A stretch of 50,946 nucleotides of DNA from Candidatus Binatia bacterium (GCA_035541935.1 DATKMJ010000015.1:1-50946), one strand, 5' to 3'; counted from the stretch's first letter, positions 432 to 49,501 are shown. Notes: generated by a model not told the origin, from the sequence alone. Translations and numbers: made by a program.

Positions 432-719
432 CTAGTCGGGGATAACGGTCGGTAGCGGCCCCGGCCTAGGAGCGATTGGGATCGGAGCCGCGGTCGGAGG
501 CAGCGGATTCACCGGAGCCGGCTTCGCCGGCGGCAGCGGATTGACCGGAGCGGGTGTGGGCGGCGGCCGCCGCGTGATAATCCCGGGTTGAGCGAGATTC
601 TGCGACGCTCCCGGCGGGATGACGCTCGAGGATAGCCCGTTGCCGCTGCATCCGCCGAGAACGACGACTGCCGCGCAAGCGCCCAGGAACGTGCGGCCCA
701 GATTCGACGTGATCTTCAT
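432..719 (-). CDS. Small proline-rich lipoprotein
   Basis: This 95-residue product starts with MKITSNLGRTF, has a hydrophobic stretch GACAAVVVLGG and a lipobox with Cys24 (VLGGC), so it is predicted to be exported and lipid-anchored. After the anchor comes a short Gly/Ser segment, then a Pro-rich tail containing two near-identical units PAPVNPLPP and more Ala-Pro runs. Such tails usually act as extended spacers or wall-spanning stalks. A good ribosome-binding site (AAGGAGA) lies about 6 nt before the ATG. The gene sits downstream of the decarboxylase on the same strand with about 100 nt between. I do not recognise a functional family. Similar small Pro/Thr-rich lipoproteins occur at 23668-24153 and 50410-50799. 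Confidence 0.7.
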   Translation of the reverse strand: MKITSNLGRTFLGACAAVVVLGGCSGNGLSSSVIPPGASQNLAQPGIITRRPPPTPAPVNPLPPAKPAPVNPLPPTAAPIPIAPRPGPLPTVIPD

Positions 720-2288: not shown

Positions 2289-3338
2289 ATGAAGTACCGC
2301 ACCTACCCCGGCAGCGACGTGACCGTCAGCGAGGTCGGCTTCGGGCTCTGGACGACGTCGACGGGCTGGTGGGGCGAGAAGAGCGACGACGAGGCCGTTG
2401 CGATGCTGCGCGAGGCCTACGATCTCGGCGTCACGCTCTACGACGCCGCCGATACCTACGGCAACGGCCGCAGCGAAGAGCAGCTCGCGCGCGCCTTTAG
2501 CGACCGGCGCGAGCGGGTCGTCTACGCGACGAAGTTCGGTTACGATTTCTCCGACGACGGGCAGGCGCGGCGCGGACAGTCCGAGTTGCCGCAAGACTTC
2601 TCTCCGGCCTTCGTTCGGCGCGCGCTCGAAGCGTCGCTGCGGCGGCTGCAGACCGAGTACGTCGACGTCTACCAGATGCACAACGCGCGCATGACGCAGA
2701 TCGAGGACGACGCGCTGTGGGAGCTGCTCGAATCGTTCAAGCAAGAGGGGAAAGTCCGCATGTGCGGCGTCGCGCTCGGACCGGCGATCGGCTGGCTCTA
2801 CGAGGGCGTCGAGGCCGTGCGGCGGCGCAATGTCGCGACGCTGCAGATCATCTGGAACGCGCTCGAACAGTATCCCGGCAACGAGCAGATTCGCGCCGCC
2901 TACGACGCCGGTGCGAACACGGGCTACATGATCCGCGTCCCGCACTCGAGCGGCATGCTCGAAGGGCGCTACACCGCCGAGACGACCTTCCCCAAAGGCG
3001 ACCACCGCCGTCACCGGCCGCGCGAGTGGCTCATCAACGGCATCGAGAAGATCGCGCAACTGCGCTTCCTCGAGCGCCCCGATCGCACGCTCGGGCAGGC
3101 CGCGATCGGCTGGCTGCTCGCCGAGCCGCGCGTGATGACCGTGCTTCCCAACATCTACGATCGCGAGCAGCTTGTCGAGTTCGCGACGGCGCCCGACGCA
3201 CCGGCGCTTACCGGCGACGAGCTCGCGCGGATTGCCGAGCTCTACGCCGGGAACTTCGGCATCGAGGAGCCGCCGATGGCGTTCAAAGGCACGATGGAAC
3301 CGGTCCGCGCCGGCGTCGAGAAAGAGCCGGTCGCATGA
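2289..3338 (+). CDS. Aldo/keto reductase
   Basis: A 349-residue NADPH-dependent oxidoreductase of the AKR superfamily (TIM barrel). The N-terminus MKYRTYPGSDVTVSEVGFGLW matches the family's first strand. Catalytic residues are visible: Asp and Tyr in LYDAADTYGNGRSE, Lys in VVYATKFGY, and His in VDVYQMHNA. The C-terminal half carries the cofactor-side motif region (GQAAIGWLLAEPRVMTVLPNI). A ribosome-binding site GGAGAAGG lies just before the ATG, supporting this start; the open frame extends far upstream but only as antisense to the decarboxylase. It overlaps the following RidA gene by ATGA, so the two are probably translationally coupled. Substrate unknown; reduction of an aldehyde made by the neighbouring decarboxylase is possible but only inferred. 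Confidence 0.9.
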   Translation: MKYRTYPGSDVTVSEVGFGLWTTSTGWWGEKSDDEAVAMLREAYDLGVTLYDAADTYGNGRSEEQLARAFSDRRERVVYATKFGYDFSDDGQARRGQSELPQDFSPAFVRRALEASLRRLQTEYVDVYQMHNARMTQIEDDALWELLESFKQEGKVRMCGVALGPAIGWLYEGVEAVRRRNVATLQIIWNALEQYPGNEQIRAAYDAGANTGYMIRVPHSSGMLEGRYTAETTFPKGDHRRHRPREWLINGIEKIAQLRFLERPDRTLGQAAIGWLLAEPRVMTVLPNIYDREQLVEFATAPDAPALTGDELARIAELYAGNFGIEEPPMAFKGTMEPVRAGVEKEPVA

Positions 3339-3715
3339 AGCACGAGCACATCGTCACGCCGCACGCGCCGGCGCCGATCGGCCCGTACAGCCAAGCGATT
3401 CACTTCGGCAGCGAGATCTACTGCAGCGGCCAGATTCCGCTCGATCCCGCGACCGGCGAGATCGTCGGGGGCGACGCCGCGGCGCAGACCGAGCGGGTGC
3501 TCGAAAATCTCGGCGCCGTGCTCTGCGCCGCCGGCTACCACTTCGCCGACGTCGTGAAGACGACGATCTTTCTCGTCGACATGAACGACTTTCCGGCGGT
3601 GAATGCCGTCTACGAAAAATACTTCGGCGCGAGCAAACCCGCACGTTCGACCGTCGCGGTCGCGGCGCTCCCGCGCGGCGCGCGCGTCGAAATCGACTGC
3701 ATCGCGAAGGATTAA
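3335..3715 (+). CDS. ridA: RidA family enamine/imine deaminase
   Basis: A 126-residue protein of the RidA/YjgF/UK114 family, which hydrolyses reactive enamine and imine intermediates released by PLP enzymes (for example 2-aminoacrylate), making ammonia and a ketoacid. Family motifs are present: PIGPYSQAI near the N-terminus, CSGQIPLDPATGEIVGG, and the catalytic-arginine region SKPARSTVAVAALPRGARVEIDCIA at the C-terminus. The start codon overlaps the stop of the aldo/keto reductase gene (ATGA at 3335-3338). Its position beside a PLP decarboxylase is consistent with a clean-up role. Trimeric and cytosolic in known members. Confidence 0.93.
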   Translation: MKHEHIVTPHAPAPIGPYSQAIHFGSEIYCSGQIPLDPATGEIVGGDAAAQTERVLENLGAVLCAAGYHFADVVKTTIFLVDMNDFPAVNAVYEKYFGASKPARSTVAVAALPRGARVEIDCIAKD

Positions 3716-3725
3716 GAGCTCCGCA

Positions 3726-5390
3726 TCATTTCCCAGACCACGAAAAACTGCTCGGCGCCGCTGCGAATGAGATCTCGTCGTACGGGCTTGGCAGGTAGAT
3801 CACACCAAAGCTTAGCGCGACGGTCTGTCCAAAAACGGTCAGATATACCGGTGTCGGGTTGGAGAAGGCGACGACCGAAGGGCCAAAATACGGCGTCGAG
3901 CAGGTCGCCGCGGCTGTAGGGGAGGTCGGTGGCGTGAGCAGATTCAGGGCGGTATTCGAGTCGTTATAGCCTGGGCAGTTTTCGACGAACAGCCCTTGCG
4001 CGACCGGCACAGTCACATTAACCGGCTGCTGTCCCAGAAGCCGGTCGTAACCCGTCAGATCACAACCCTTCACGATCACCGTTCCGACCGGTGCGGCGGT
4101 CACGAGTAGGCCATATTGCTGAAAGTTCAGGTTTGAGCCGGGTACGGAGCCCGCCCAGGGGTAGCTTGGCTGCAGATTAGCGCCGAGGATCTGAATGTCG
4201 CCGCAAGCTCCGGTAATCGCTATGCCGGCGCCGCCTACGCTGCCGTTGTTGGAGTACGTCCCACCAAGAATTTTAACGTTTGTGCCCCCTACTATCTCAA
4301 GGCCGTATTGAGCGTTGGCGCTCGCCGCACCACTAAACACGGTGCAGTCCAAGAGCGTAATGTCGCTTAGTTGGCCAATGCCCCCGTCCGGATCTATGAG
4401 CACAATCGCGCTTTGGTCCGTTGACTGCGTAGACTTGGCCAGCATACAGCTAGTGACCTTGACGCCCGCGATCTGGTTCGGCATCGCAGATGGGACGGAG
4501 ATATTAAGCGCGGACTGCCAGCACTGGATCTCGCAGTTTCGGATCTCGGTGTCCATCGCTCCGCCGAGCTGCGCAAAATCCACGCCGATATTCCAGTCGG
4601 TAAGGTGGACGTCGGCGATCACAGTTTGCTCGGCACCCTCAAGCGAGACGGCGGTACAATCGGCTGGTCCGGGGTTTGCCCCTCCTTGAGGGCGCTGGTC
4701 GATCTCGGCGGGCCCGAAAATCCCGCATCCCGCGGCAGCAATAACGATCGCGGTTGCCCCATCCTTCGTGTCGTAGGTAATGGTGCATTGTTCGAGGGTG
4801 CAGTTGTCGCCTAACGCGTAGAATGCCGTTGGAATGTCCGTGAAAACGCAGTTAACCGCGCGGCAGCTGTCGGTAGCCGCGTAAATGCACGTATCGTTGG
4901 TGCTCGGTACCGGCATCGCTGCCTTGAAGGAAAGGCCACGGAAATGAATTCCGCCCCCCGTATAGCTGCCCGTGCAACTGAGAAAGATCGTGCCTCCAGA
5001 GAAATCGATGACAAAGTGATGGAAGTCGTTGGGAGGCGGCGAACCAACTAGGGAACCGCCCCCGCCTGAGCCGATCAGATTACTCTGATCGGGTACGGAG
5101 AAACCCGTTGAAGAGGCGAGCATATTCCGCGAGAGTGCCCTCTGCTGAATGAACGCCGTTCCCCCAGTCGCGTAAGGGCCGGGCGCCATCGCCGCAAACA
5201 TATTCGTTAGCGCGGCGTTCGGGTCACCGCCCGCACTGTCGACGTATTTTGTGTAGTTGAAGATCGTCATCGCGCTGAAATCTTCGTCTTGGCCAATAGA
5301 GCAGCGCACCTGACGGCGACCGAGCATTTGAGATTCGTACAAGGCCACCTGATCGAGCGGAGACCTCCAAAGCGACAAAAATTCCGTCAC
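3726..5390 (-). CDS. Right-handed parallel beta-helix protein, copy 1
   Basis: A 554-residue protein built like pectate-lyase/tailspike beta-helices. Residues 1-40 form a distinct N-terminal segment (EFLSLWRSPLDQVAL ... RCSIGQDEDFSA). Residues about 41-105 resemble the lead-in of Pectate_lyase_3 proteins (NAALTNMFAAM ... GGTAF ... FSVPDQ ... GSGGGG). Residues about 110-490 are short beta-strand repeats ending in V/I-x-N/D-C patterns (INCxF, LEQCTI, RNCEIQCW, LLDCTV), giving stacked cysteines. The C-terminus keeps CSTPYFG and LPSPYD. There is no signal peptide. Starts with GTG at 5390, GAGG 5 nt upstream, overlapping the previous gene's TGA. Local G+C is clearly lower than that of flanking genes, suggesting transfer. 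It is a paralogue of 6734-8374 along its whole length. It might bind or cleave a polysaccharide; catalytic residues cannot be assigned. Confidence 0.82.
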   Translation of the reverse strand: MTEFLSLWRSPLDQVALYESQMLGRRQVRCSIGQDEDFSAMTIFNYTKYVDSAGGDPNAALTNMFAAMAPGPYATGGTAFIQQRALSRNMLASSTGFSVPDQSNLIGSGGGGSLVGSPPPNDFHHFVIDFSGGTIFLSCTGSYTGGGIHFRGLSFKAAMPVPSTNDTCIYAATDSCRAVNCVFTDIPTAFYALGDNCTLEQCTITYDTKDGATAIVIAAAGCGIFGPAEIDQRPQGGANPGPADCTAVSLEGAEQTVIADVHLTDWNIGVDFAQLGGAMDTEIRNCEIQCWQSALNISVPSAMPNQIAGVKVTSCMLAKSTQSTDQSAIVLIDPDGGIGQLSDITLLDCTVFSGAASANAQYGLEIVGGTNVKILGGTYSNNGSVGGAGIAITGACGDIQILGANLQPSYPWAGSVPGSNLNFQQYGLLVTAAPVGTVIVKGCDLTGYDRLLGQQPVNVTVPVAQGLFVENCPGYNDSNTALNLLTPPTSPTAAATCSTPYFGPSVVAFSNPTPVYLTVFGQTVALSFGVIYLPSPYDEISFAAAPSSFSWSGK

Positions 5391-5723
5391 GTCGCCTCGA
5401 CCCCCTCCTCCGGGTCCTCGCGATCGTCGAGCTCCTCGTCATCAGAGTCCTGAAGCGCCTCGATTCCTCTTCTGAGAACCTCAAGTAGCAAGCTGCGTGC
5501 CTCCGCAAAGAGTCGACGATTCTCCTCGTTGTCCCCGGGGGACTTGGGAGAGCACTGCGACGGCGAGCGATCCTCGCTGCAGAGCGAACTGCTCATCTTG
5601 GATGGCGCGTTGCGCCTTGGCGCGTTCCAAATCGGCCGCCGCGGCAAGCGTCTCGCGCGACGGAAGGCTGCTGTACGCCTCGGCGAGTAGCTTTCGACGA
5701 GCGCGGCGGGCGGCTGAGTCCAT
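5387..5723 (-). pseudogene. Small charged helical protein interrupted by an apparent +1 frameshift
   Basis: Two short overlapping frames look like halves of one gene. The upstream frame starts with ATG at 5723, preceded by GAGGT about 8 nt away, and encodes MDSAARRARRKLLAEAYSSL followed by a Glu/Ala/Arg-rich helix to ...VLSQVP. The downstream frame continues GDNEENRRLFAEARSLLLE and ends in a very acidic tail (DSDDEELDDREDPEEGVEAT) whose TGA overlaps the GTG of the beta-helix gene. The frames meet at a CCCCC-GGGG run (minus strand, 5533-5541). Removing one base there joins them into one about 111-residue protein of uniform helical, charged character. A sequencing error, a real mutation or programmed +1 shifting would all explain it. 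No family recognised. Confidence 0.6.
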
Positions 5724-5729
5724 TAGCTG

Positions 5730-6737
5730 CTACCTCGATTCTGCCAGCGAAACTGCTACACCGGAAACTTGAGGATCACGAGCGCCCCCGATTCGCTTGA
5801 TCGTCCTTTCTGGCGCCCCGCCTGCGGGGTATGACCAGAAGAACGCGTCTTCGTTCCCTCGCTTGCTTCCCCCGGCGCCGATGATAGTTTTGTCCTGAAT
5901 CCAGAGCTGCCCGTGGTAATAATTTTTCATGCTATCGAGCAACGCCGACCCGACGATCGTCGCTCTGTGGCCGGAGATTCTAAGACGGAATATCGTGATC
6001 GGATCTCGATACGCATCCGACGACACCACTAGGTCTCTTCCATCCCACTGCACCGACGGTAGAAGGTTGCCCGTTTTCAAGGTTGCGTCAAGGCTAATTT
6101 GCTCGAACTGATTTCCCCCAGCCGGGAGCCGAACGAGCTGCGCGCCTCCATTCTTCCCATTCGAAGCAGAAAGATAGAGGTTCCCGCGAGTATCGTATCC
6201 ACAATAGTAGAAGTTGAAGCTCGGGCTCGAGTAGGTGGTCGGGGTCCCGCGTGCATGATGAAAGATCGCTACGCTCTGGCCCGAAGCAGCTAGGTCGCCC
6301 GTGACCGAGTCGACGGCACAGCCGGTCGCGAGGCCTGGGTCGCTCAGCGTCGCGATCGGCGTGCTCCCGCCATGAGCAAACTCGTAAATCGTACTGGAAG
6401 TGGACGACGCACCGGCAAGCGCGACAATAAATACGTCCCCCGCGCTATCTATGCACTCGCCGAACGGTTCGTAAAATCCGGTAAGCTTACCGACCAGGTG
6501 ACCTTCCGGATAGGTATAGACGTAAACGGCCCCCGCGATAGGCATGGCTGCAAGGTACAGCAGGGCCTTGCTCGCCAGAGCATCGTGCCCGCCGGCCTTT
6601 ACCGCAGCGACCGTCGGGCGAGCCGCATCGGTCGCGGGCGCTTGGCCGCAACCTGAAAAGGCGGCCACACTGGCGCAGGCGCCTACAATAAATCGCCAAA
6701 TGGAGCCCCACGAGGCCGCGGCCGCCGCAGCGTTCAC
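5730..6737 (-). CDS. Beta-propeller (NHL/SMP-30-like) lipoprotein
   Basis: A 335-residue predicted lipoprotein. The N-terminus has a hydrophobic stretch and lipobox FSGC (Cys30). The mature part is a series of propeller-like blades: VYVYTYPEGHLVGKLTGFYEPFGECIDSAGDVFIVAL, then IYEFAHGGSTPIATL, YDTRGNLYLSAS, and a late blade AFFWSYPAGGAPERTI. The pattern 'Y-P-x-G-x-x-v-g-x-l-t-G-F-x-x-P-x-G-x-C-x-D-x-x-G-d-V-f' recalls propeller lipoproteins that I believe are expanded in Eremiobacterota; the specific function is unknown. It starts with GTG, overlapping the stop of beta-helix copy 2 (GTGA), and is followed 6 nt later by the small helical gene, so it belongs to the same low-GC transcription unit. 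It probably sits on the cell surface or in the periplasm and binds a ligand. Confidence 0.75.
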   Translation of the reverse strand: MNAAAAAASWGSIWRFIVGACASVAAFSGCGQAPATDAARPTVAAVKAGGHDALASKALLYLAAMPIAGAVYVYTYPEGHLVGKLTGFYEPFGECIDSAGDVFIVALAGASSTSSTIYEFAHGGSTPIATLSDPGLATGCAVDSVTGDLAASGQSVAIFHHARGTPTTYSSPSFNFYYCGYDTRGNLYLSASNGKNGGAQLVRLPAGGNQFEQISLDATLKTGNLLPSVQWDGRDLVVSSDAYRDPITIFRLRISGHRATIVGSALLDSMKNYYHGQLWIQDKTIIGAGGSKRGNEDAFFWSYPAGGAPERTIKRIGGARDPQVSGVAVSLAESR

Positions 6738-8374
6738 TTGCCTATCCAGGCAAACGTCGTCGGTGGCGACGGGCTGAACGAGAACACATCATACGGGCTT
6801 GGCAGAAACACGATTCCGAAGTTCGAGTTGATCGACTGGCCAAAGACACTCAGCGTGGTCGCGCCAGAATAGATTATTACCGATGCCCCGAAGTAGGGCG
6901 TCGAGCATGTCGCTGCGCTGACGCCAGTTGTCAGCATGGTCGGTGTGGCACTCAGTGGGGTATTCTGGTCGTTGTACCCCGGACAATCGGTAATGAAGAG
7001 GTCCGCGGGGCTCCCCACGACGCTTATCGGCGGTCCGACGTAGCCAGTCATATCGCAACCCGACACCAGCACACTGCCGCTTGGGCTTGCGCTAACCAGC
7101 AACGCGTACCTTTGGACGTTGACGTTCGGCGCGGCCGGATAGCTCGGTTGAAGATTGGCTCCGATGATCTGAACGTCCGAGCAGCTCCCAGTGATCGCAA
7201 CTCCAGCCCCGTACGGGCCGTTGTTTGAATAACAGCCACCGAGAATCCTGATGTTGGAGCCGCTCGTGATCACTAGGCCATGCTGTGAACTCAGGAGCGG
7301 CGCGGCTGCTCGATTGTAGACCGTACAGTCGACGAGGGCGATGTCATTGAGGAGCTCGTTGTTGGCGCTTCCCCTCGCATCGATGTTGACAATGGCATTC
7401 ACATCACTGGAGTCGCTGGTCTTTGCCAGGATACAGCTGGTGATCTTTAGGCCGGCAGTCGTTGCGCTGGCACCCGTAGATAGTTGGATGTTTAGTGCGG
7501 TTTCCCAACATGCGATTTCGCAATTCGTAATGTGTGCAAATCTTGTGCCGTCCTGCTGTGAAAAATCGACGCCGATCGTCCATTCAAAGATCTTTACGCC
7601 GGAGACAATTGGATGCTGAGCGCTCTCGATGGAAACGCAGGTGCATCCGGTAGCTCCGCCGCTAGCGCGGGAAGTTTGGGAAAACTGCCCCGGCCCGATA
7701 ACACCGCACCGCTGACCGCCGAGGATTACCGCTTTGGTCCCGTTCGGTCCTTGAGTCGCGGAAACAGTGTAACTGATGCTACATTGCTCGAGCGTACAGG
7801 TAAGGTCCTGAGCATTGAAAGCGCACGGGCAATCCGTGAAAGTGCAGTTGATCGCCCGCGTATTCCACACTGCCGCATGGATGCAGGTGTCGGCCGCGTG
7901 GGTCGATGGGCTCCACTGGAAGGCCAAGCTGCGGAAATACATACCACCGCCGGTGTGCGTGGAGGCATTACAGTTGAAAAACGTCGAGTTGCCGGTGGCC
8001 GTTGGGGTGATGACGAAATGAAAGAAGGACGATCCGCCCATAGTCTCCAGGGGACCGCCACCCCCCGAGCCGTTGACGTCGCATTGGTCAGGTACCGCGA
8101 AGCCACTTGAGGTTGCGTGGACGGAGAAGCTTTTCTGCGGGACAAAAGCGCGGCCGCCAACTGGGCTTGCCGCGCTCATTGCGGCGAACATTCCGGTAAG
8201 CGCCGTGTCCGGCGTCCCGCCCAGCGAAGCGTAGTGCCCAAAATTGTAGATCGTCAACGCGCTGAAATCTTCGCCGTAACCAATCGAGCAACGAGGTTGC
8301 CGATCATGAAGCGAGCTCGCTTCGCGCATCGCGACCGTGTCGAGGGGTGAACGCCATAGCGAGAGAATTTCCAC
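6734..8374 (-). CDS. Right-handed parallel beta-helix protein, copy 2
   Basis: A 546-residue paralogue of 3726-5390. Shared landmarks in order: ILSLWRSPLDTVAM and RCSIGYGEDFSAL at the N-terminus, ALTGMFAAM, FAVPDQ, GSGGGG, FHFVI, FRSLAF, repeated Cys-ending coils (INCTFTDC, LEQCSI, TNCEIACWETALNI, LVDCTV), YSNNGPYGAGVAITG, IIGANLQPSYP, then TCSTPYFG and LPSPYD at the end. The frame is open back to a TTG at 8395. I chose GTG at 8374 because GGAGGT lies about 7 nt upstream and the protein then begins at the same place as copy 1. There is no signal peptide. Lower G+C than flanking genes. Adjacent to the TPR gene upstream and fused by GTGA overlap to the propeller lipoprotein downstream. Confidence 0.82.
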   Translation of the reverse strand: MEILSLWRSPLDTVAMREASSLHDRQPRCSIGYGEDFSALTIYNFGHYASLGGTPDTALTGMFAAMSAASPVGGRAFVPQKSFSVHATSSGFAVPDQCDVNGSGGGGPLETMGGSSFFHFVITPTATGNSTFFNCNASTHTGGGMYFRSLAFQWSPSTHAADTCIHAAVWNTRAINCTFTDCPCAFNAQDLTCTLEQCSISYTVSATQGPNGTKAVILGGQRCGVIGPGQFSQTSRASGGATGCTCVSIESAQHPIVSGVKIFEWTIGVDFSQQDGTRFAHITNCEIACWETALNIQLSTGASATTAGLKITSCILAKTSDSSDVNAIVNIDARGSANNELLNDIALVDCTVYNRAAAPLLSSQHGLVITSGSNIRILGGCYSNNGPYGAGVAITGSCSDVQIIGANLQPSYPAAPNVNVQRYALLVSASPSGSVLVSGCDMTGYVGPPISVVGSPADLFITDCPGYNDQNTPLSATPTMLTTGVSAATCSTPYFGASVIIYSGATTLSVFGQSINSNFGIVFLPSPYDVFSFSPSPPTTFAWIGK

Positions 8375-8416
8375 GGCGGGTACCTCCAGCCCCAATGGAC
8401 TACCGGAAGACTACGC

Positions 8417-8425
8417 GGGGGGGGG
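8417..8425. repeat. G9/C9 homopolymer tract between the TPR gene and beta-helix copy 2
   Basis: Nine consecutive G on the plus strand (C on the coding strand) lie in the 66-nt spacer between the TPR stop (8441) and the beta-helix start (8374). Such tracts can change length by slipped-strand mispairing, which might alter coupling or leader structure, but the tract is outside both coding frames. Confidence 0.6.
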
Positions 8426-8440
8426 ATTCCTTCCTTCTTG

Positions 8441-9637
8441 CTACTGGGGCGCCGTCTGCGGCGCTTGCATCAAGCGCTGCGTCTCTTCTTTTGCGATCTG
8501 GGCGACGTCGGGGTCGAGCGACGTTTCGGCGGCCTTGAGCTGGTCGAGCGCGAGCGCCTTCTCGCCTTGCGCGGCGTACGCTCGCGCGAGCAGGTAGTGG
8601 ACGCGCCCGTCGTACGGCGCCGCGGCAACGCCTTTGATCAACGCGGCCTGCGCGAGCGGGTAGAGCCCGTTGTGCTCGTAGTCGATGCCGAGGTTCACGT
8701 ATGACTCGGGAACGTACGGATTGACGGAGATCGCCTCGACGTAATACGTCACCGCGCGCTTCCAGTCGCCGTGATAATCGGCGAGGTAGCCGAAGTTCAC
8801 GATCGCCTCGGGACGCTCGGGCTCCAGGCGATGCGCGATCTTGAACTGGTCGAGCGCCCCGTCGTACTCTCCCGCTTGAATCTTCGCCACGCCGAGATTG
8901 TCGCGGCACGCGTAGTTGACGACGTCGACGTTGAGGCAGTCGTTGAGGTACCGCGTCGCGTCCGCGTAATCGTGCATGTCGAGGTAGGCCATGCCCAGCC
9001 CGTTGAGCGCCGGAACCGAGCGTCCGTCGCTGTCGAGCGCGCGGCGAAAATAGACGATCGCATCCCCGGGACGGCGGATCGTCTCGTAGATCTCCCCCAG
9101 CTCCTCCTGGATATCCGAGTCGTTTGGCTCCGCGACCGCGAGGCGTTCCATCTCGGCGCGATACTGCGCGAGATCGCCCTTGCGCAGATGGAGCATGACG
9201 AGGTCGCGAATTGAATCGGTTCCGGGAAGCGCGCTGTTGAACTGCGCGATCGCGTCGTCGACGCGATTCTGCGTCGCATAGACGACGCCGAGCCGGTTAT
9301 GCGTCTCCTTGTCGTGCGGGTTGCGCGCGAGCAGCTGCTGGTAGACGGCTTCCGCGCGGTCGAAATGCCCCTGACGGTAGTAGAGGTCGCCGAGAAAGCG
9401 CGCCGCTTCGGGCGCGTCGGGATGCGTCGCGACGAAGGCCGCGAGCGCCTCGACCGCCGCGTCCATCTGGCCCGCAGCGATCAGCTCGCGCGCGTACGTG
9501 ATCGCCGCTTGCTGGTCGGCCATCTTGTGGGCGTCGGCGTTGAGGATGACGTTCTCCGCGGGCGCCGGAAGGGCCGTGACGGCAAAGGCCGGCAGCAGCG
9601 CCGCGAGGGCTAGGGCAACGAGGGGGCTGCGCTTCAT
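8441..9637 (-). CDS. Exported TPR-repeat protein
   Basis: A 398-residue protein with an N-terminal signal peptide (MKRSPLVALALAALLPAFAV..., probably cleaved after about residue 28) and then tandem tetratricopeptide repeats covering nearly the whole mature chain. Clear units include EAARFLGDLYYRQGHFDRAE, THNRLGVVYATQNRVDDAI, PALNGLGMAYLDMHDYADA, EAIVNFGYLADYHGDWKRA and ESYVNLGIDYEHNGLYPLA. TPRs mediate protein-protein contacts; this one would act in the periplasm or at the outer membrane. I chose ATG 9637 over 9667 because GGTGAGGT lies just before it and the signal peptide then starts correctly. A TATAGT -10-like element lies at 9656-9661 (minus strand) without a convincing -35. It follows nuoN by 59 nt and precedes the beta-helix operon, so it could be read from either the nuo promoter or its own. 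Confidence 0.82.
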   Translation of the reverse strand: MKRSPLVALALAALLPAFAVTALPAPAENVILNADAHKMADQQAAITYARELIAAGQMDAAVEALAAFVATHPDAPEAARFLGDLYYRQGHFDRAEAVYQQLLARNPHDKETHNRLGVVYATQNRVDDAIAQFNSALPGTDSIRDLVMLHLRKGDLAQYRAEMERLAVAEPNDSDIQEELGEIYETIRRPGDAIVYFRRALDSDGRSVPALNGLGMAYLDMHDYADATRYLNDCLNVDVVNYACRDNLGVAKIQAGEYDGALDQFKIAHRLEPERPEAIVNFGYLADYHGDWKRAVTYYVEAISVNPYVPESYVNLGIDYEHNGLYPLAQAALIKGVAAAPYDGRVHYLLARAYAAQGEKALALDQLKAAETSLDPDVAQIAKEETQRLMQAPQTAPQ

Positions 9638-9696
9638 GGCATGTACCTCACCTTTACTATAGCGCATTGAGCGGGTGGGCCGTGACGCGGGCGAGG

Positions 9697-47471: not shown

Positions 47472-48326
47472 CTATTTGTTCTTGAAGCGGGCGACGCGCT
47501 TTTCGTTGTAGGCGGCGAGGCCTTCTTTCGCGTCCTCGCTCTTGAAGAGCAGCGATTGAAGCTCGCGCTCGAGCGCGAGCGCGTCTTGCAACGGTAACTC
47601 GGCGCCGGTCTGCACGCTGCGCTTGATGTGCCCGACGGCCATCGGCGCTTTGTTCGGCGAGCAGAACTGCTTCGCGTAGTCGGTGACCTGCTCGCGGAAC
47701 TCTTGCGCGCTGCCTTCGTAGAGATCGTTGATCATGCCCCAGTCGAGCGCCTGTTCGAAACTGACGGTCTTTCCGGTCGCCATCATCTCGATCGCGCGCG
47801 ACTTTCCGACGAGGCGGGCGAGGCGCTGCGTTCCGCCGGTTCCCGGCAACACGCCGAGCGCGACCTCGGGCAGCCCGATCTTGCCGGCGTCCTTGCGCGC
47901 GACGCGAATGTCGGCCGCCATCGCGATCTCGAGCCCGCCGCCGACGCAGTGGCCGTTGAGCGCGGCGATCACGAGCTTCGGCGTCTGCTCGAGGCGCGCG
48001 AGCGTCTCGTTCGCGTGGAGGCAGAACATGTACTTGAACTCGGGCGTGACCTGGTTGAGCATGCCGATGTTCGCGCCGGCCGAGAAGAACTTCTCGCCTT
48101 TGCCGGTGAGCACGATCACTTCGACGTCCGAGTCGAAGCGCGCATCCAAGATCGCCTCGTCGAGCTGGCGCATCATCTCGTGCGTGTACGTGTTCGCCGG
48201 CGGATCGTCCATCTCGACGAACGCGACGTGTTCGTCTTTGCTATAGTTGATGACGCGCTTGCCGTCGTGCGCGCGCCGCTCCCGCCCGAACGGCGTCTGC
48301 TGCGCTCCATTGACCGTCGTACTCAT
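47472..48326 (-). CDS. Enoyl-CoA hydratase/isomerase (crotonase) family protein
   Basis: A 284-residue crotonase-fold protein. The oxyanion hole loops are FSAGANIGML and AALNGHCVGGGLEIAMAADIRVA, and both acids used by hydratases are present: Glu in GGGLEIA and Glu in GLPEVALGVLPGTGG. The first 28 residues before VINYSKDEHVAFVEMD are an unconserved extension. Its start overlaps the stop of the BoxB-like gene (ATGA at 48323-48326), so the two are translationally coupled. Its substrate is therefore probably a CoA thioester from the epoxidation, but ordinary beta-oxidation is possible. It is much shorter than BoxC. Confidence 0.88.
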   Translation of the reverse strand: MSTTVNGAQQTPFGRERRAHDGKRVINYSKDEHVAFVEMDDPPANTYTHEMMRQLDEAILDARFDSDVEVIVLTGKGEKFFSAGANIGMLNQVTPEFKYMFCLHANETLARLEQTPKLVIAALNGHCVGGGLEIAMAADIRVARKDAGKIGLPEVALGVLPGTGGTQRLARLVGKSRAIEMMATGKTVSFEQALDWGMINDLYEGSAQEFREQVTDYAKQFCSPNKAPMAVGHIKRSVQTGAELPLQDALALERELQSLLFKSEDAKEGLAAYNEKRVARFKNK

Positions 48327-49444
48327 GCCAGGCTTCCCTTCGGTGCGATCCAGTTGGGGTCTTTGAAGTACTCTTTGAGTTTGGCCTCGTCGGCCTCACT
48401 GGGAAGAACCGTTGGGGCGTATGCCGCCCATTCCTCTTCCGTCAGTTTGCGGCCCTCGACCGAATAGCGCTCGCCGGCGTAATCGCCGATCTTCCGGTTG
48501 AAGCGCATGTCGGGTGCGTAGAGCTTCGTCTCGCTTGGGTTGACCTCGTTCACGCGCTCGATCGTTGCGGCCGCCTCGTCGTAGAACTGCCGCCGGGCAC
48601 GTTCGTTGAGATGCTCCTTATCGACGCCGTCGGCCGTCTTGTCTTCGTCGACGCGGCCCTTGATGCCCCAGGTGTAGGCCCATTGCGCCGAGCCGGAGTG
48701 GTCGGTTCCGAAGAGGTCGAGCGAACCCGAGAACCATTTGTTGTAATACTTCTGCTGCAGTTCGACGGGAATGACGCCGGCCTTCGCGATGCGGCGCAGG
48801 CCCGTGATGCCCGTGCCCATGTGGAACGATTCCTCGCGCAGCATCGGGCCCATCGAAGCGGCGAGCGGGGCGAAGCTCGAGTGCGAGAGCATCGTCAGTT
48901 GGAACTTTCCGTCGCGATCCATGAAGTTCGTGTACGCGAAGAAGTCGAGCCAGTGCGTCACGTCGTCGTTGAACGCGTTGAGCAGCCGGTTCTTCTTGCC
49001 GAAGGCGCGGCGCTCGAGCATCTTCTGCGCCTCGATCTTGCCTTCGCTCCCGAAATGCTCGACCATCAGGTGGCACATCTGGTAGCCGTGACGCGTCTCC
49101 TCGACCATGATGCGCACGAGCGCGGCGAGGTCGTACTCGGTCGGCGCGTTGTTGACGAGAAAGCGCTGCTGCTCGTTCGAGGCGAACTCGGTGTCGCCCT
49201 GATAGACAACCATGTTGAGCACCGCGTCGCGCATTCGCTGATCGGGAATCTCGCGCACGCGCTCCCAGCGGCGATCGCCCTTGAAATCGCCGAAGTAAAT
49301 CTCGGGCGTCGGCAACTCGCCGTACTTCGCTTCGAACTCGTACCCGGGCATGAAGCGGTCGACGAGCTCCCGGTCGAGGCCGATATCGCGCCTCCACTCG
49401 TCGAGCATTACGATCCAGTCGTCAAAGGTCGAAATTCGATTCAT
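48323..49444 (-). CDS. BoxB-like diiron epoxygenase (benzoyl-CoA 2,3-epoxidase subunit family)
   Basis: A 373-residue ferritin-like protein, clearly shorter than the roughly 470 residues of Azoarcus BoxB. Motifs shared with BoxB: QGDTEFASNEQQRFL, PTEYDLAALVRIMVEETRHGYQMCHLMVEHFG, LLNAFNDDVTHWLDFF, MDRDGKFQL, MLREESFHMGTG, and near the end FNRKIGDYAGERYSVEGRKLTEEEW. The residues in the spacing I recall for the diiron ligands are Glu86, Glu116, His119, Asp176, Glu205 and His208. It would insert one O2 atom into an aromatic CoA thioester; the BoxA reductase is absent here. It is divergent from paaX, its likely repressor. Benzoyl-CoA as substrate is not proven. Confidence 0.82.
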   Translation of the reverse strand: MNRISTFDDWIVMLDEWRRDIGLDRELVDRFMPGYEFEAKYGELPTPEIYFGDFKGDRRWERVREIPDQRMRDAVLNMVVYQGDTEFASNEQQRFLVNNAPTEYDLAALVRIMVEETRHGYQMCHLMVEHFGSEGKIEAQKMLERRAFGKKNRLLNAFNDDVTHWLDFFAYTNFMDRDGKFQLTMLSHSSFAPLAASMGPMLREESFHMGTGITGLRRIAKAGVIPVELQQKYYNKWFSGSLDLFGTDHSGSAQWAYTWGIKGRVDEDKTADGVDKEHLNERARRQFYDEAAATIERVNEVNPSETKLYAPDMRFNRKIGDYAGERYSVEGRKLTEEEWAAYAPTVLPSEADEAKLKEYFKDPNWIAPKGSLA

Positions 49445-49460
49445 GACTCCGCCTTCCAGC

Positions 49461-49501
49461 GTATAACGGATTTTTCTCGGTCGGTGGGAATAGCGTTATA
49501 C
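49461..49501. promoter_or_regulatory. Symmetric inverted repeat in the boxB-like/paaX divergent promoter
   Basis: GTATAACG (49461-49468) and CGTTATAC (49494-49501) are exact inverted repeats 25 bp apart. Each arm includes a -10-like TTATAC reading outward, one toward the BoxB-like gene (start 49444, 16 nt away) and one toward paaX (start 49520, 18 nt away). The layout suits a PaaX-type repressor binding both promoters at once, with CoA-thioester release, as known for PaaX; PaaX's site in this organism is not known. Confidence 0.55.

What the first reader, a model, noticed from the sequence alone, without database searches (positions are those of the whole stretch)
3726..8374. Low-GC operon with two paralogous beta-helix proteins and a propeller lipoprotein
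Four minus-strand genes overlap or nearly touch: beta-helix copy 2, propeller lipoprotein, small acidic helical protein, beta-helix copy 1. Base composition is clearly more AT-rich than the rest of the window, a sign of transfer or different selection. The two beta-helix proteins align along their whole length, including both ends. No phage, secretion or polysaccharide genes accompany them. This looks like an uncharacterised surface or carbohydrate-interaction module.
Basis: partly seen in the sequence, partly recalled or inferred. Interest (0 to 1): 0.7.

Follow-up and report, generated by a model that had tools for sequence, protein, structure and literature searches.

The report
Phage tailspike genes kept by bacterium
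A bacterium of the uncultured phylum Eremiobacterota carries, beside a surface lipoprotein gene, two copies of a phage spike protein that have lost half of the part that fixes the spike to the virus, and selection has kept both copies intact, which suggests the cell uses them for something of its own.

Summary
Four minus-strand genes form a 4.7-kb AT-rich block (GC3 0.66-0.68 against 0.86-0.90 in flanking genes) inserted between convergent RidA and TPR genes that lie 1-70 bp apart in ten related genomes. The two 550-residue proteins are full-length paralogues (51% identical). The "small acidic protein" is a frameshifted remnant.

The interpretation changes: these are phage-type tailspikes. They are homologous (33-37%) to the spike gene in the structural operon (portal, major head protein, spike) of ~50-kb Eremiobacterota phages, and their best fold match is the Sf6 tailspike (Z 34). 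The phages share an N-terminal anchor module even where the receptor-binding part was swapped. The window copies and one relative keep its first half (a helix ending RQPRC) and lack the rest, so phage to host is the likely direction. Both stay open at saturated synonymous divergence, so they are selected.

Spike-like genes sit within 600 bp of a hugely expanded beta-propeller lipoprotein family in 30 of 36 clusters, in every orientation; two sit likewise in a second genus.

Function is inferred. I favour a host-kept, anchorless spike acting at the cell surface, perhaps against phages. No export signal was seen.

The parts
6734..8374 (-). BH1: tailspike-type right-handed beta-helix protein, 546 aa, GTG start; keeps the first half of the phage anchor module (helix, RQPRC) and lacks the second half
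5730..6737 (-). PROP: beta-propeller lipoprotein, 335 aa, member of a family with 29 matches in this genome; GTG start overlaps the BH1 stop
5387..5723 (-). S: decayed small gene split by a +1 frame change near 5537 (5' ORF 5481-5723; acidic 3' frame ends 5387)
3726..5390 (-). BH2: second tailspike-type beta-helix protein, 554 aa, GTG start overlapping the end of the S frame; same anchor truncation
8288..8374 (-). Retained first half of the phage virion-anchor module in BH1 (SLWRSPLDTVAMREASSLHDRQPRC)
5301..5390 (-). Same retained half-module in BH2 (SLWRSPLDQVALYESQMLGRRQVRC)
3716..8440 (.). Inserted block between the stops of RidA (3335-3715 +) and the TPR gene (8441-9667 -); 1-70 bp in ten relatives

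Best explanation
BH1 and BH2 are cellular descendants of the tailspike of a ~50-kb phage lineage of Eremiobacterota (identity and phage-to-host direction: about 0.85). An ancestral copy lost the second half of the spike's virion-anchor module, was duplicated, and has been kept as a working protein next to a surface lipoprotein of an expanded beta-propeller family. Most likely mechanism (inferred, about 0.45): the anchorless spikes still fold as tailspike-like beta-helices and still bind the surface ligand (glycan or propeller lipoprotein) that the phage spike recognised; made together with the lipoprotein by translational coupling, they occupy or alter the cell surface, which changes adsorption of related phages and contacts with the surrounding matrix. 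Shown: homology, predicted fold, anchor truncation, duplication, purifying selection, insertion site, recurrent lipoprotein pairing. Inferred: trimer formation, ligand, release from the cell, surface action.
For: Homology to spikes in phage structural operons; phage lineage linked to an Eremiobacterota assembly by a 69% identical major head protein; shared anchor module in phage spikes, also in front of a different receptor-binding part (L186), with only its first half in BH1, BH2 and the G008 copy; tree placement with phage spikes 100/100; Sf6 tailspike Z 34.2; pN 0.33 at saturated pS 0.77 with both frames open; 4725-bp insertion against 1-70 bp in ten relatives; PROP within 600 bp of 30 of 36 beta-helix clusters, and of both PF12708 proteins of G029; phage spike GC3 0.67-0.69 equals BH GC3 0.68.
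Against: None of the beta-helix N-termini read shows a signal peptide, so surface action needs an unknown release route (by eye, no predictor was run). No recognised catalytic pair is conserved. The PROP genes that are paired do not form their own clade, so pairing may reflect shared hot spots. Many copies elsewhere are fragments. The window-type clade is supported only 67/99. No expression or binding data exist.
Confidence: 0.45

Rival explanations
1. Endogenous phage-gene restriction: cytosolic anchorless spikes mix into the trimers of an infecting related phage, or hold its assembly partners through the retained helix, so that progeny lack working spikes, while the lipoprotein hinders adsorption.
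For: No export signal seen; shared C-terminal spike region and retained anchor helix; fast turnover of copies in the genus; related phages of the same host family exist; tail-assembly interference is a known defence principle (Tab, Tai).
Against: No match to known defence proteins; spikes are only 33-37% identical to the known phage spikes, which may be too far for mixed trimers; the other beta-helix clade of the genus lacks the anchor helix altogether.
Confidence: 0.22
2. Passing cargo: phage-derived spike genes and accessory lipoproteins accumulate in insertion hot spots, persist for a while and decay, with no settled role in the host.
For: S is broken; many beta-helix copies are fragments, for example in G008; the RidA-TPR junction holds different cargo in different relatives.
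Against: BH1 and BH2 are both open over about 550 codons at saturated synonymous distance with pN 0.33; pairing with PROP is far above chance and recurs in another genus.
Confidence: 0.22
3. Cellular origin: the beta-helix genes are an old Eremiobacterota family, and phages captured them as spikes.
For: Beta-helix genes are diverse in the genus, and unrooted trees cannot prove direction.
Against: BH1, BH2 and the G008 copy carry the first half of a module that is the common anchor of this phage lineage, including a spike with another receptor-binding part.
Confidence: 0.1

Closest known systems
Podovirus tailspikes (Sf6, HK620; also CBA120 TSP3 and phi29 gp12 appendage)
   Same: Right-handed beta-helix over residues 39-477 of BH1; Z 34.2 to Sf6 tailspike, about 30 to HK620, CBA120 TSP3 and phi29 gp12; sequence homologues occupy the spike slot of Eremiobacterota phages
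   Different: Encoded in the chromosome without other phage genes; second half of the virion anchor missing; duplicated; next to a lipoprotein; no known catalytic pair identified
TspA, detachable tailspike of the Rhodobacter gene transfer agent (PMC13420450)
   Same: A tailspike gene kept by the bacterium away from a phage structural cluster
   Different: TspA is co-regulated with, and attaches loosely to, a particle; no such particle genes accompany the window copies, and this lineage's head protein is absent from the genome. Sequence relation to TspA was not tested
Tab and Tai tail-assembly-blocking defences (PMC10884400, PMC11364771)
   Same: Would share the principle of stopping virion assembly if the restriction rival is right
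   Different: No homology found (PADLOC, which dates from 2023 and may not hold them); BH1/BH2 derive from a receptor-binding spike
Pfam PF13229 / PF12708 beta-helix proteins
   Same: BH2 reaches PF13229 at 27.1 bits (cut-off 25.9); relatives in G010, G013 and G029 reach PF12708
   Different: BH1 matches neither; these families cover very many unrelated functions

Membership tests
Phage tailspike (receptor-binding) proteins | Right-handed beta-helix fold of the tailspike type | tested here: met
   AlphaFold pLDDT 78.9; Sf6 tailspike Z 34.2, 2.6 A over 358 residues; predicted model, not solved
Phage tailspike (receptor-binding) proteins | Sequence homology to a spike encoded in a phage structural operon | tested here: met
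   33% identity, E 2e-74 to L075 spike behind portal and major head protein
Phage tailspike (receptor-binding) proteins | Complete N-terminal virion-anchor module | tested here: not met
   First half retained, DxTIxxLP...TLxQLxxLIG half absent in BH1, BH2 and the G008 copy
Phage tailspike (receptor-binding) proteins | Gene lies with phage structural genes | tested here: not met
   Block sits alone between RidA and TPR; phage head protein absent from the genome
Phage tailspike (receptor-binding) proteins | Stable homotrimer | not testable with these tools
   Only a single-chain model was made
Tailspike depolymerases (glycan-cleaving) | Conserved catalytic acidic residues | tested here: inconclusive
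   Only E286, D469 and D529 are invariant acids among three window-type and two phage copies; active sites of tailspikes differ between families
Bacterial surface lipoproteins (PROP) | Signal peptide with lipobox cysteine | tested here: met
   C30 invariant in 12 relatives; by pattern, no signal-peptide predictor was run
Bacterial surface lipoproteins (PROP) | Beta-propeller domain | tested here: met
   Model pLDDT 80.9; Foldseek matches to many propellers such as LRP, TolB, YncE; no Pfam match
Known anti-phage defence systems (PADLOC) | Match to a defence-protein model | tested here: not met
   No match for BH1, BH2, PROP or S

The most novel reading that the evidence does not exclude
A bacterial restriction factor made from a viral gene: duplicated, half-anchored copies of a phage's receptor-binding spike, coupled to a surface lipoprotein drawn from a large and variable family, protect the cell from phages with related spikes by blocking adsorption, the spiking of virions, or both.
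Probability: 0.22. Interest if true: 0.85.

Novelty: new variant of a known kind. Interest (0 to 1): 0.58.

Why it matters
It shows a bacterium-side fate of a phage spike gene that can be followed step by step: the phage donor lineage, the half-loss of the anchor module, duplication, purifying selection, and recurrent pairing with one class of surface lipoprotein in two genera of an uncultured phylum. If the copies act against phages, this would be a bacterial parallel to endogenous viral restriction genes. If they act on the matrix, it widens the TspA precedent beyond gene transfer agents. It also names a candidate receptor class (propeller lipoproteins) for a phage lineage whose hosts are hardly cultured.

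Tried and rejected
tblastn of GenBank phages (BH1) and PLSDB plasmids (BH2) gave nothing; the phage link appeared only through IMG/VR. Ordinary prophage remnant: rejected, since the empty site leaves no room for other phage genes and the head protein is absent from the genome. Fixed PROP-BH co-evolution: not supported, paired PROP genes are scattered on the PROP tree. Programmed frameshift in S: considered, but other copies are broken in other ways, so decay is simpler. My S query carried an R where the relative has a TAG stop (my misreading); the match table itself reports the stop. Mobile-element borders: repeats in 3200-9000 are BH1/BH2 paralogy or short chance matches, with no flanking repeat. 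Low GC3 as proof of phage origin: not used alone, since other PROP genes of the genome range from 0.56 to 0.85. Paper searches found no report of such modules in Eremiobacterota.

Full report
CHECK OF THE OBSERVATION. The window lies in a 2.41-Mb genome (98.95% complete). Named relatives found with the beta-helix profile are all 'Candidatus Eremiobacterota' assemblies, so the phylum is set by those relatives. On the minus strand the order is BH1 (6734-8374), PROP (5730-6737), S, BH2 (3726-5390). BH1's TGA overlaps PROP's GTG, the S frame's TGA overlaps BH2's GTG, and S starts 6 bp after PROP, an arrangement suited to translational coupling. BH1 and BH2 align over their whole length at 51% identity. 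GC is 0.589 in the block against 0.674 +/- 0.022 in the rest of the window; GC3 is 0.68 (BH2), 0.66 (PROP) and 0.68 (BH1) against 0.86-0.90 in flanking genes.

THE SMALL GENE IS A REMNANT. The 'small acidic helical protein' is the second half of a gene whose two halves a relative (G008:C188, L033) matches in one frame. In the window the frame changes by +1 at CCCCCGGGG near 5537; in the relative an in-frame TAG interrupts it; copies after PROP genes in G016:C65 and G008:C178 are truncated or diverged. A sequencing error at the homopolymer cannot be excluded for the window copy alone.

INSERTION SITE. In ten relatives the convergent RidA and TPR genes are 1-70 bp apart; in the window 4725 bp lie between their stops. 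In G002, G015 and G016 other genes occupy the junction, and in G008 the TPR gene is followed by PROP genes and a beta-helix fragment. The junction is a recurrent landing place, and the block came in without other phage genes.

WHAT THE BETA-HELIX PROTEINS ARE. Pfam, PHROGs, NCBIfam and PADLOC give at most a marginal PF13229 match and a weak virion-structural hit for BH2. IMG/VR gave the answer. Two ~53-kb viral contigs encode 643- and 625-residue homologues (BH1 against L075: 33%, E 2e-74), placed behind portal (phrog_156) and major head protein (phrog_9953, E 1.5e-46). Searching with the head protein found 13 viral loci. Where the region is covered, the slot before a 383-410-residue gene usually carries a spike: this beta-helix family in L075, L076, L176 and L178, and proteins not recognised by the beta-helix profile in L181, L183 and L186; L185 has none there. 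A 69% identical head protein is on contig C57 of G063, an assembly of the same family as the window's genome; that contig ends inside a spike start '...RQPRMDSTIAQL'. This ties the phage lineage to these hosts, with the caveat that binning can err.

ANCHOR TRUNCATION. The phage spikes share an N-terminal module: a helix with an (L/I)D..AL..A..LA pattern, RQPR, then DxTIxxLP...D..P.Y...TLxQLxxLIG. L186 carries it in front of a different C-terminal part, so it is most likely the virion anchor and belongs to the phage (L076 has only the second half). BH1, BH2 and the G008 copy keep the helix and RQ(P/V)RC and then jump to the beta-helix start (SIGYGEDFSALTIYNFG in BH1, TTDFSAITMYNYG in L075), lacking about 45-50 residues. 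The shared gap is consistent with one event, although the sisterhood of the three is only moderately supported (67/99). Trees put them with the phage spikes (100/100) and apart from the other beta-helix genes of the genus. Phage to host is therefore the likely direction.

FOLD. The AlphaFold model of BH1 (pLDDT 78.9) has an N-terminal helix (10-25), a right-handed beta-helix and a small C-terminal beta domain; the first 30 residues and 469-485 are of low confidence. The best solved match is the Sf6 tailspike (Z 34.2, 2.6 A, 358 residues); AlgE epimerases, CBA120 TSP3, HK620 and phi29 gp12 follow. A shared fold shows no activity: the acids invariant among three window-type and two phage copies (E286, D469, D529) do not make a recognised catalytic pair. 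PROP has an invariant lipobox cysteine and a predicted propeller.

SELECTION. BH1 against BH2: pS 0.774 (saturated), pN 0.326, differences by codon position 207/154/333; comparisons with the G008 copy are alike. Two ~550-codon frames open at that distance mean long purifying selection. Because the anchor truncation is shared, that selection most simply acted after the protein had stopped being a complete virion spike.

PAIRING WITH THE LIPOPROTEIN FAMILY. Beta-helix genes occur in 14 of 18 genomes of the genus, often as fragments; beyond it only G029 matches. Of 36 beta-helix clusters read with flanks, 30 have PROP within 600 bp (13 upstream, 7 downstream, 6 divergent, 4 convergent). At the highest PROP density counted the chance is about 0.19 per cluster, binomial p about 1e-16; clusters share ancestry, so this overstates the evidence. 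G016 repeats the order BH-PROP-BH with other members. In G029 the only two PF12708 proteins found in the genome both abut PROP-like genes. Paired PROP genes are scattered over the PROP tree (18 changes against 19.0 shuffled): the rule is 'beta-helix next to some PROP', not one fixed pair.

HOW IT LIKELY WORKS. Shown: phage-spike ancestry, predicted fold, half-loss of the anchor, duplication, selection, insertion, pairing. Inferred: anchorless spikes keep ligand binding and, with the lipoprotein, act at the cell surface (adsorption of related phages, matrix contacts). The retained helix and the lack of a visible export signal leave room for a cytosolic, assembly-interfering role. TspA of the Rhodobacter gene transfer agent is the nearest precedent for a lone host-kept tailspike (PMC13420450); Tab and Tai are the nearest for assembly interference. 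Passing cargo remains possible (0.22), since S is broken and many copies elsewhere are fragments.

NOVELTY. Lone or prophage-borne tailspikes are known. Duplicated, anchor-truncated tailspikes coupled to propeller lipoproteins outside any prophage, and recurring in a phylum, are a new variant as far as these searches reach (open-access papers only).

Noticed in passing
window 5387-5723 (-): Small gene S follows PROP genes in several places (window, G008:C188, G008:C178, G016:C65) and every copy read is broken or diverged in its own way.
   Followed up: partly
G000-G017 and G029: One beta-propeller lipoprotein family is greatly expanded: 29 matches in this 2.4-Mb genome, 63 in G029, yet absent from most other genera of the same family.
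   Followed up: partly
L075, L076, L176-L186, L137: A ~50-kb phage lineage of Eremiobacterota has a spike slot in which unrelated receptor-binding parts are swapped behind one conserved N-terminal anchor module.
   Followed up: partly
L095 6217-8565 (-) and L096 8122-10305 (+): In another genus (G029) the only two PF12708 proteins found each abut a propeller lipoprotein gene, one overlapping it by 38 bp as called.
   Followed up: partly
window 3715-8441; L094, L123, L129, L135: The convergent RidA-TPR junction carries different inserted genes in different relatives, so it is an insertion hot spot.
   Followed up: partly
window 432-719 (-): Small proline-rich lipoprotein ORF (95 aa) with repeated PAPVNPLPP segments next to the decarboxylase gene.
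   Followed up: no
window 47500-49500: A second dip in GC (0.61-0.64) covers two genes of normal GC3 (0.85-0.90), so it is not a sign of transfer.
   Followed up: yes
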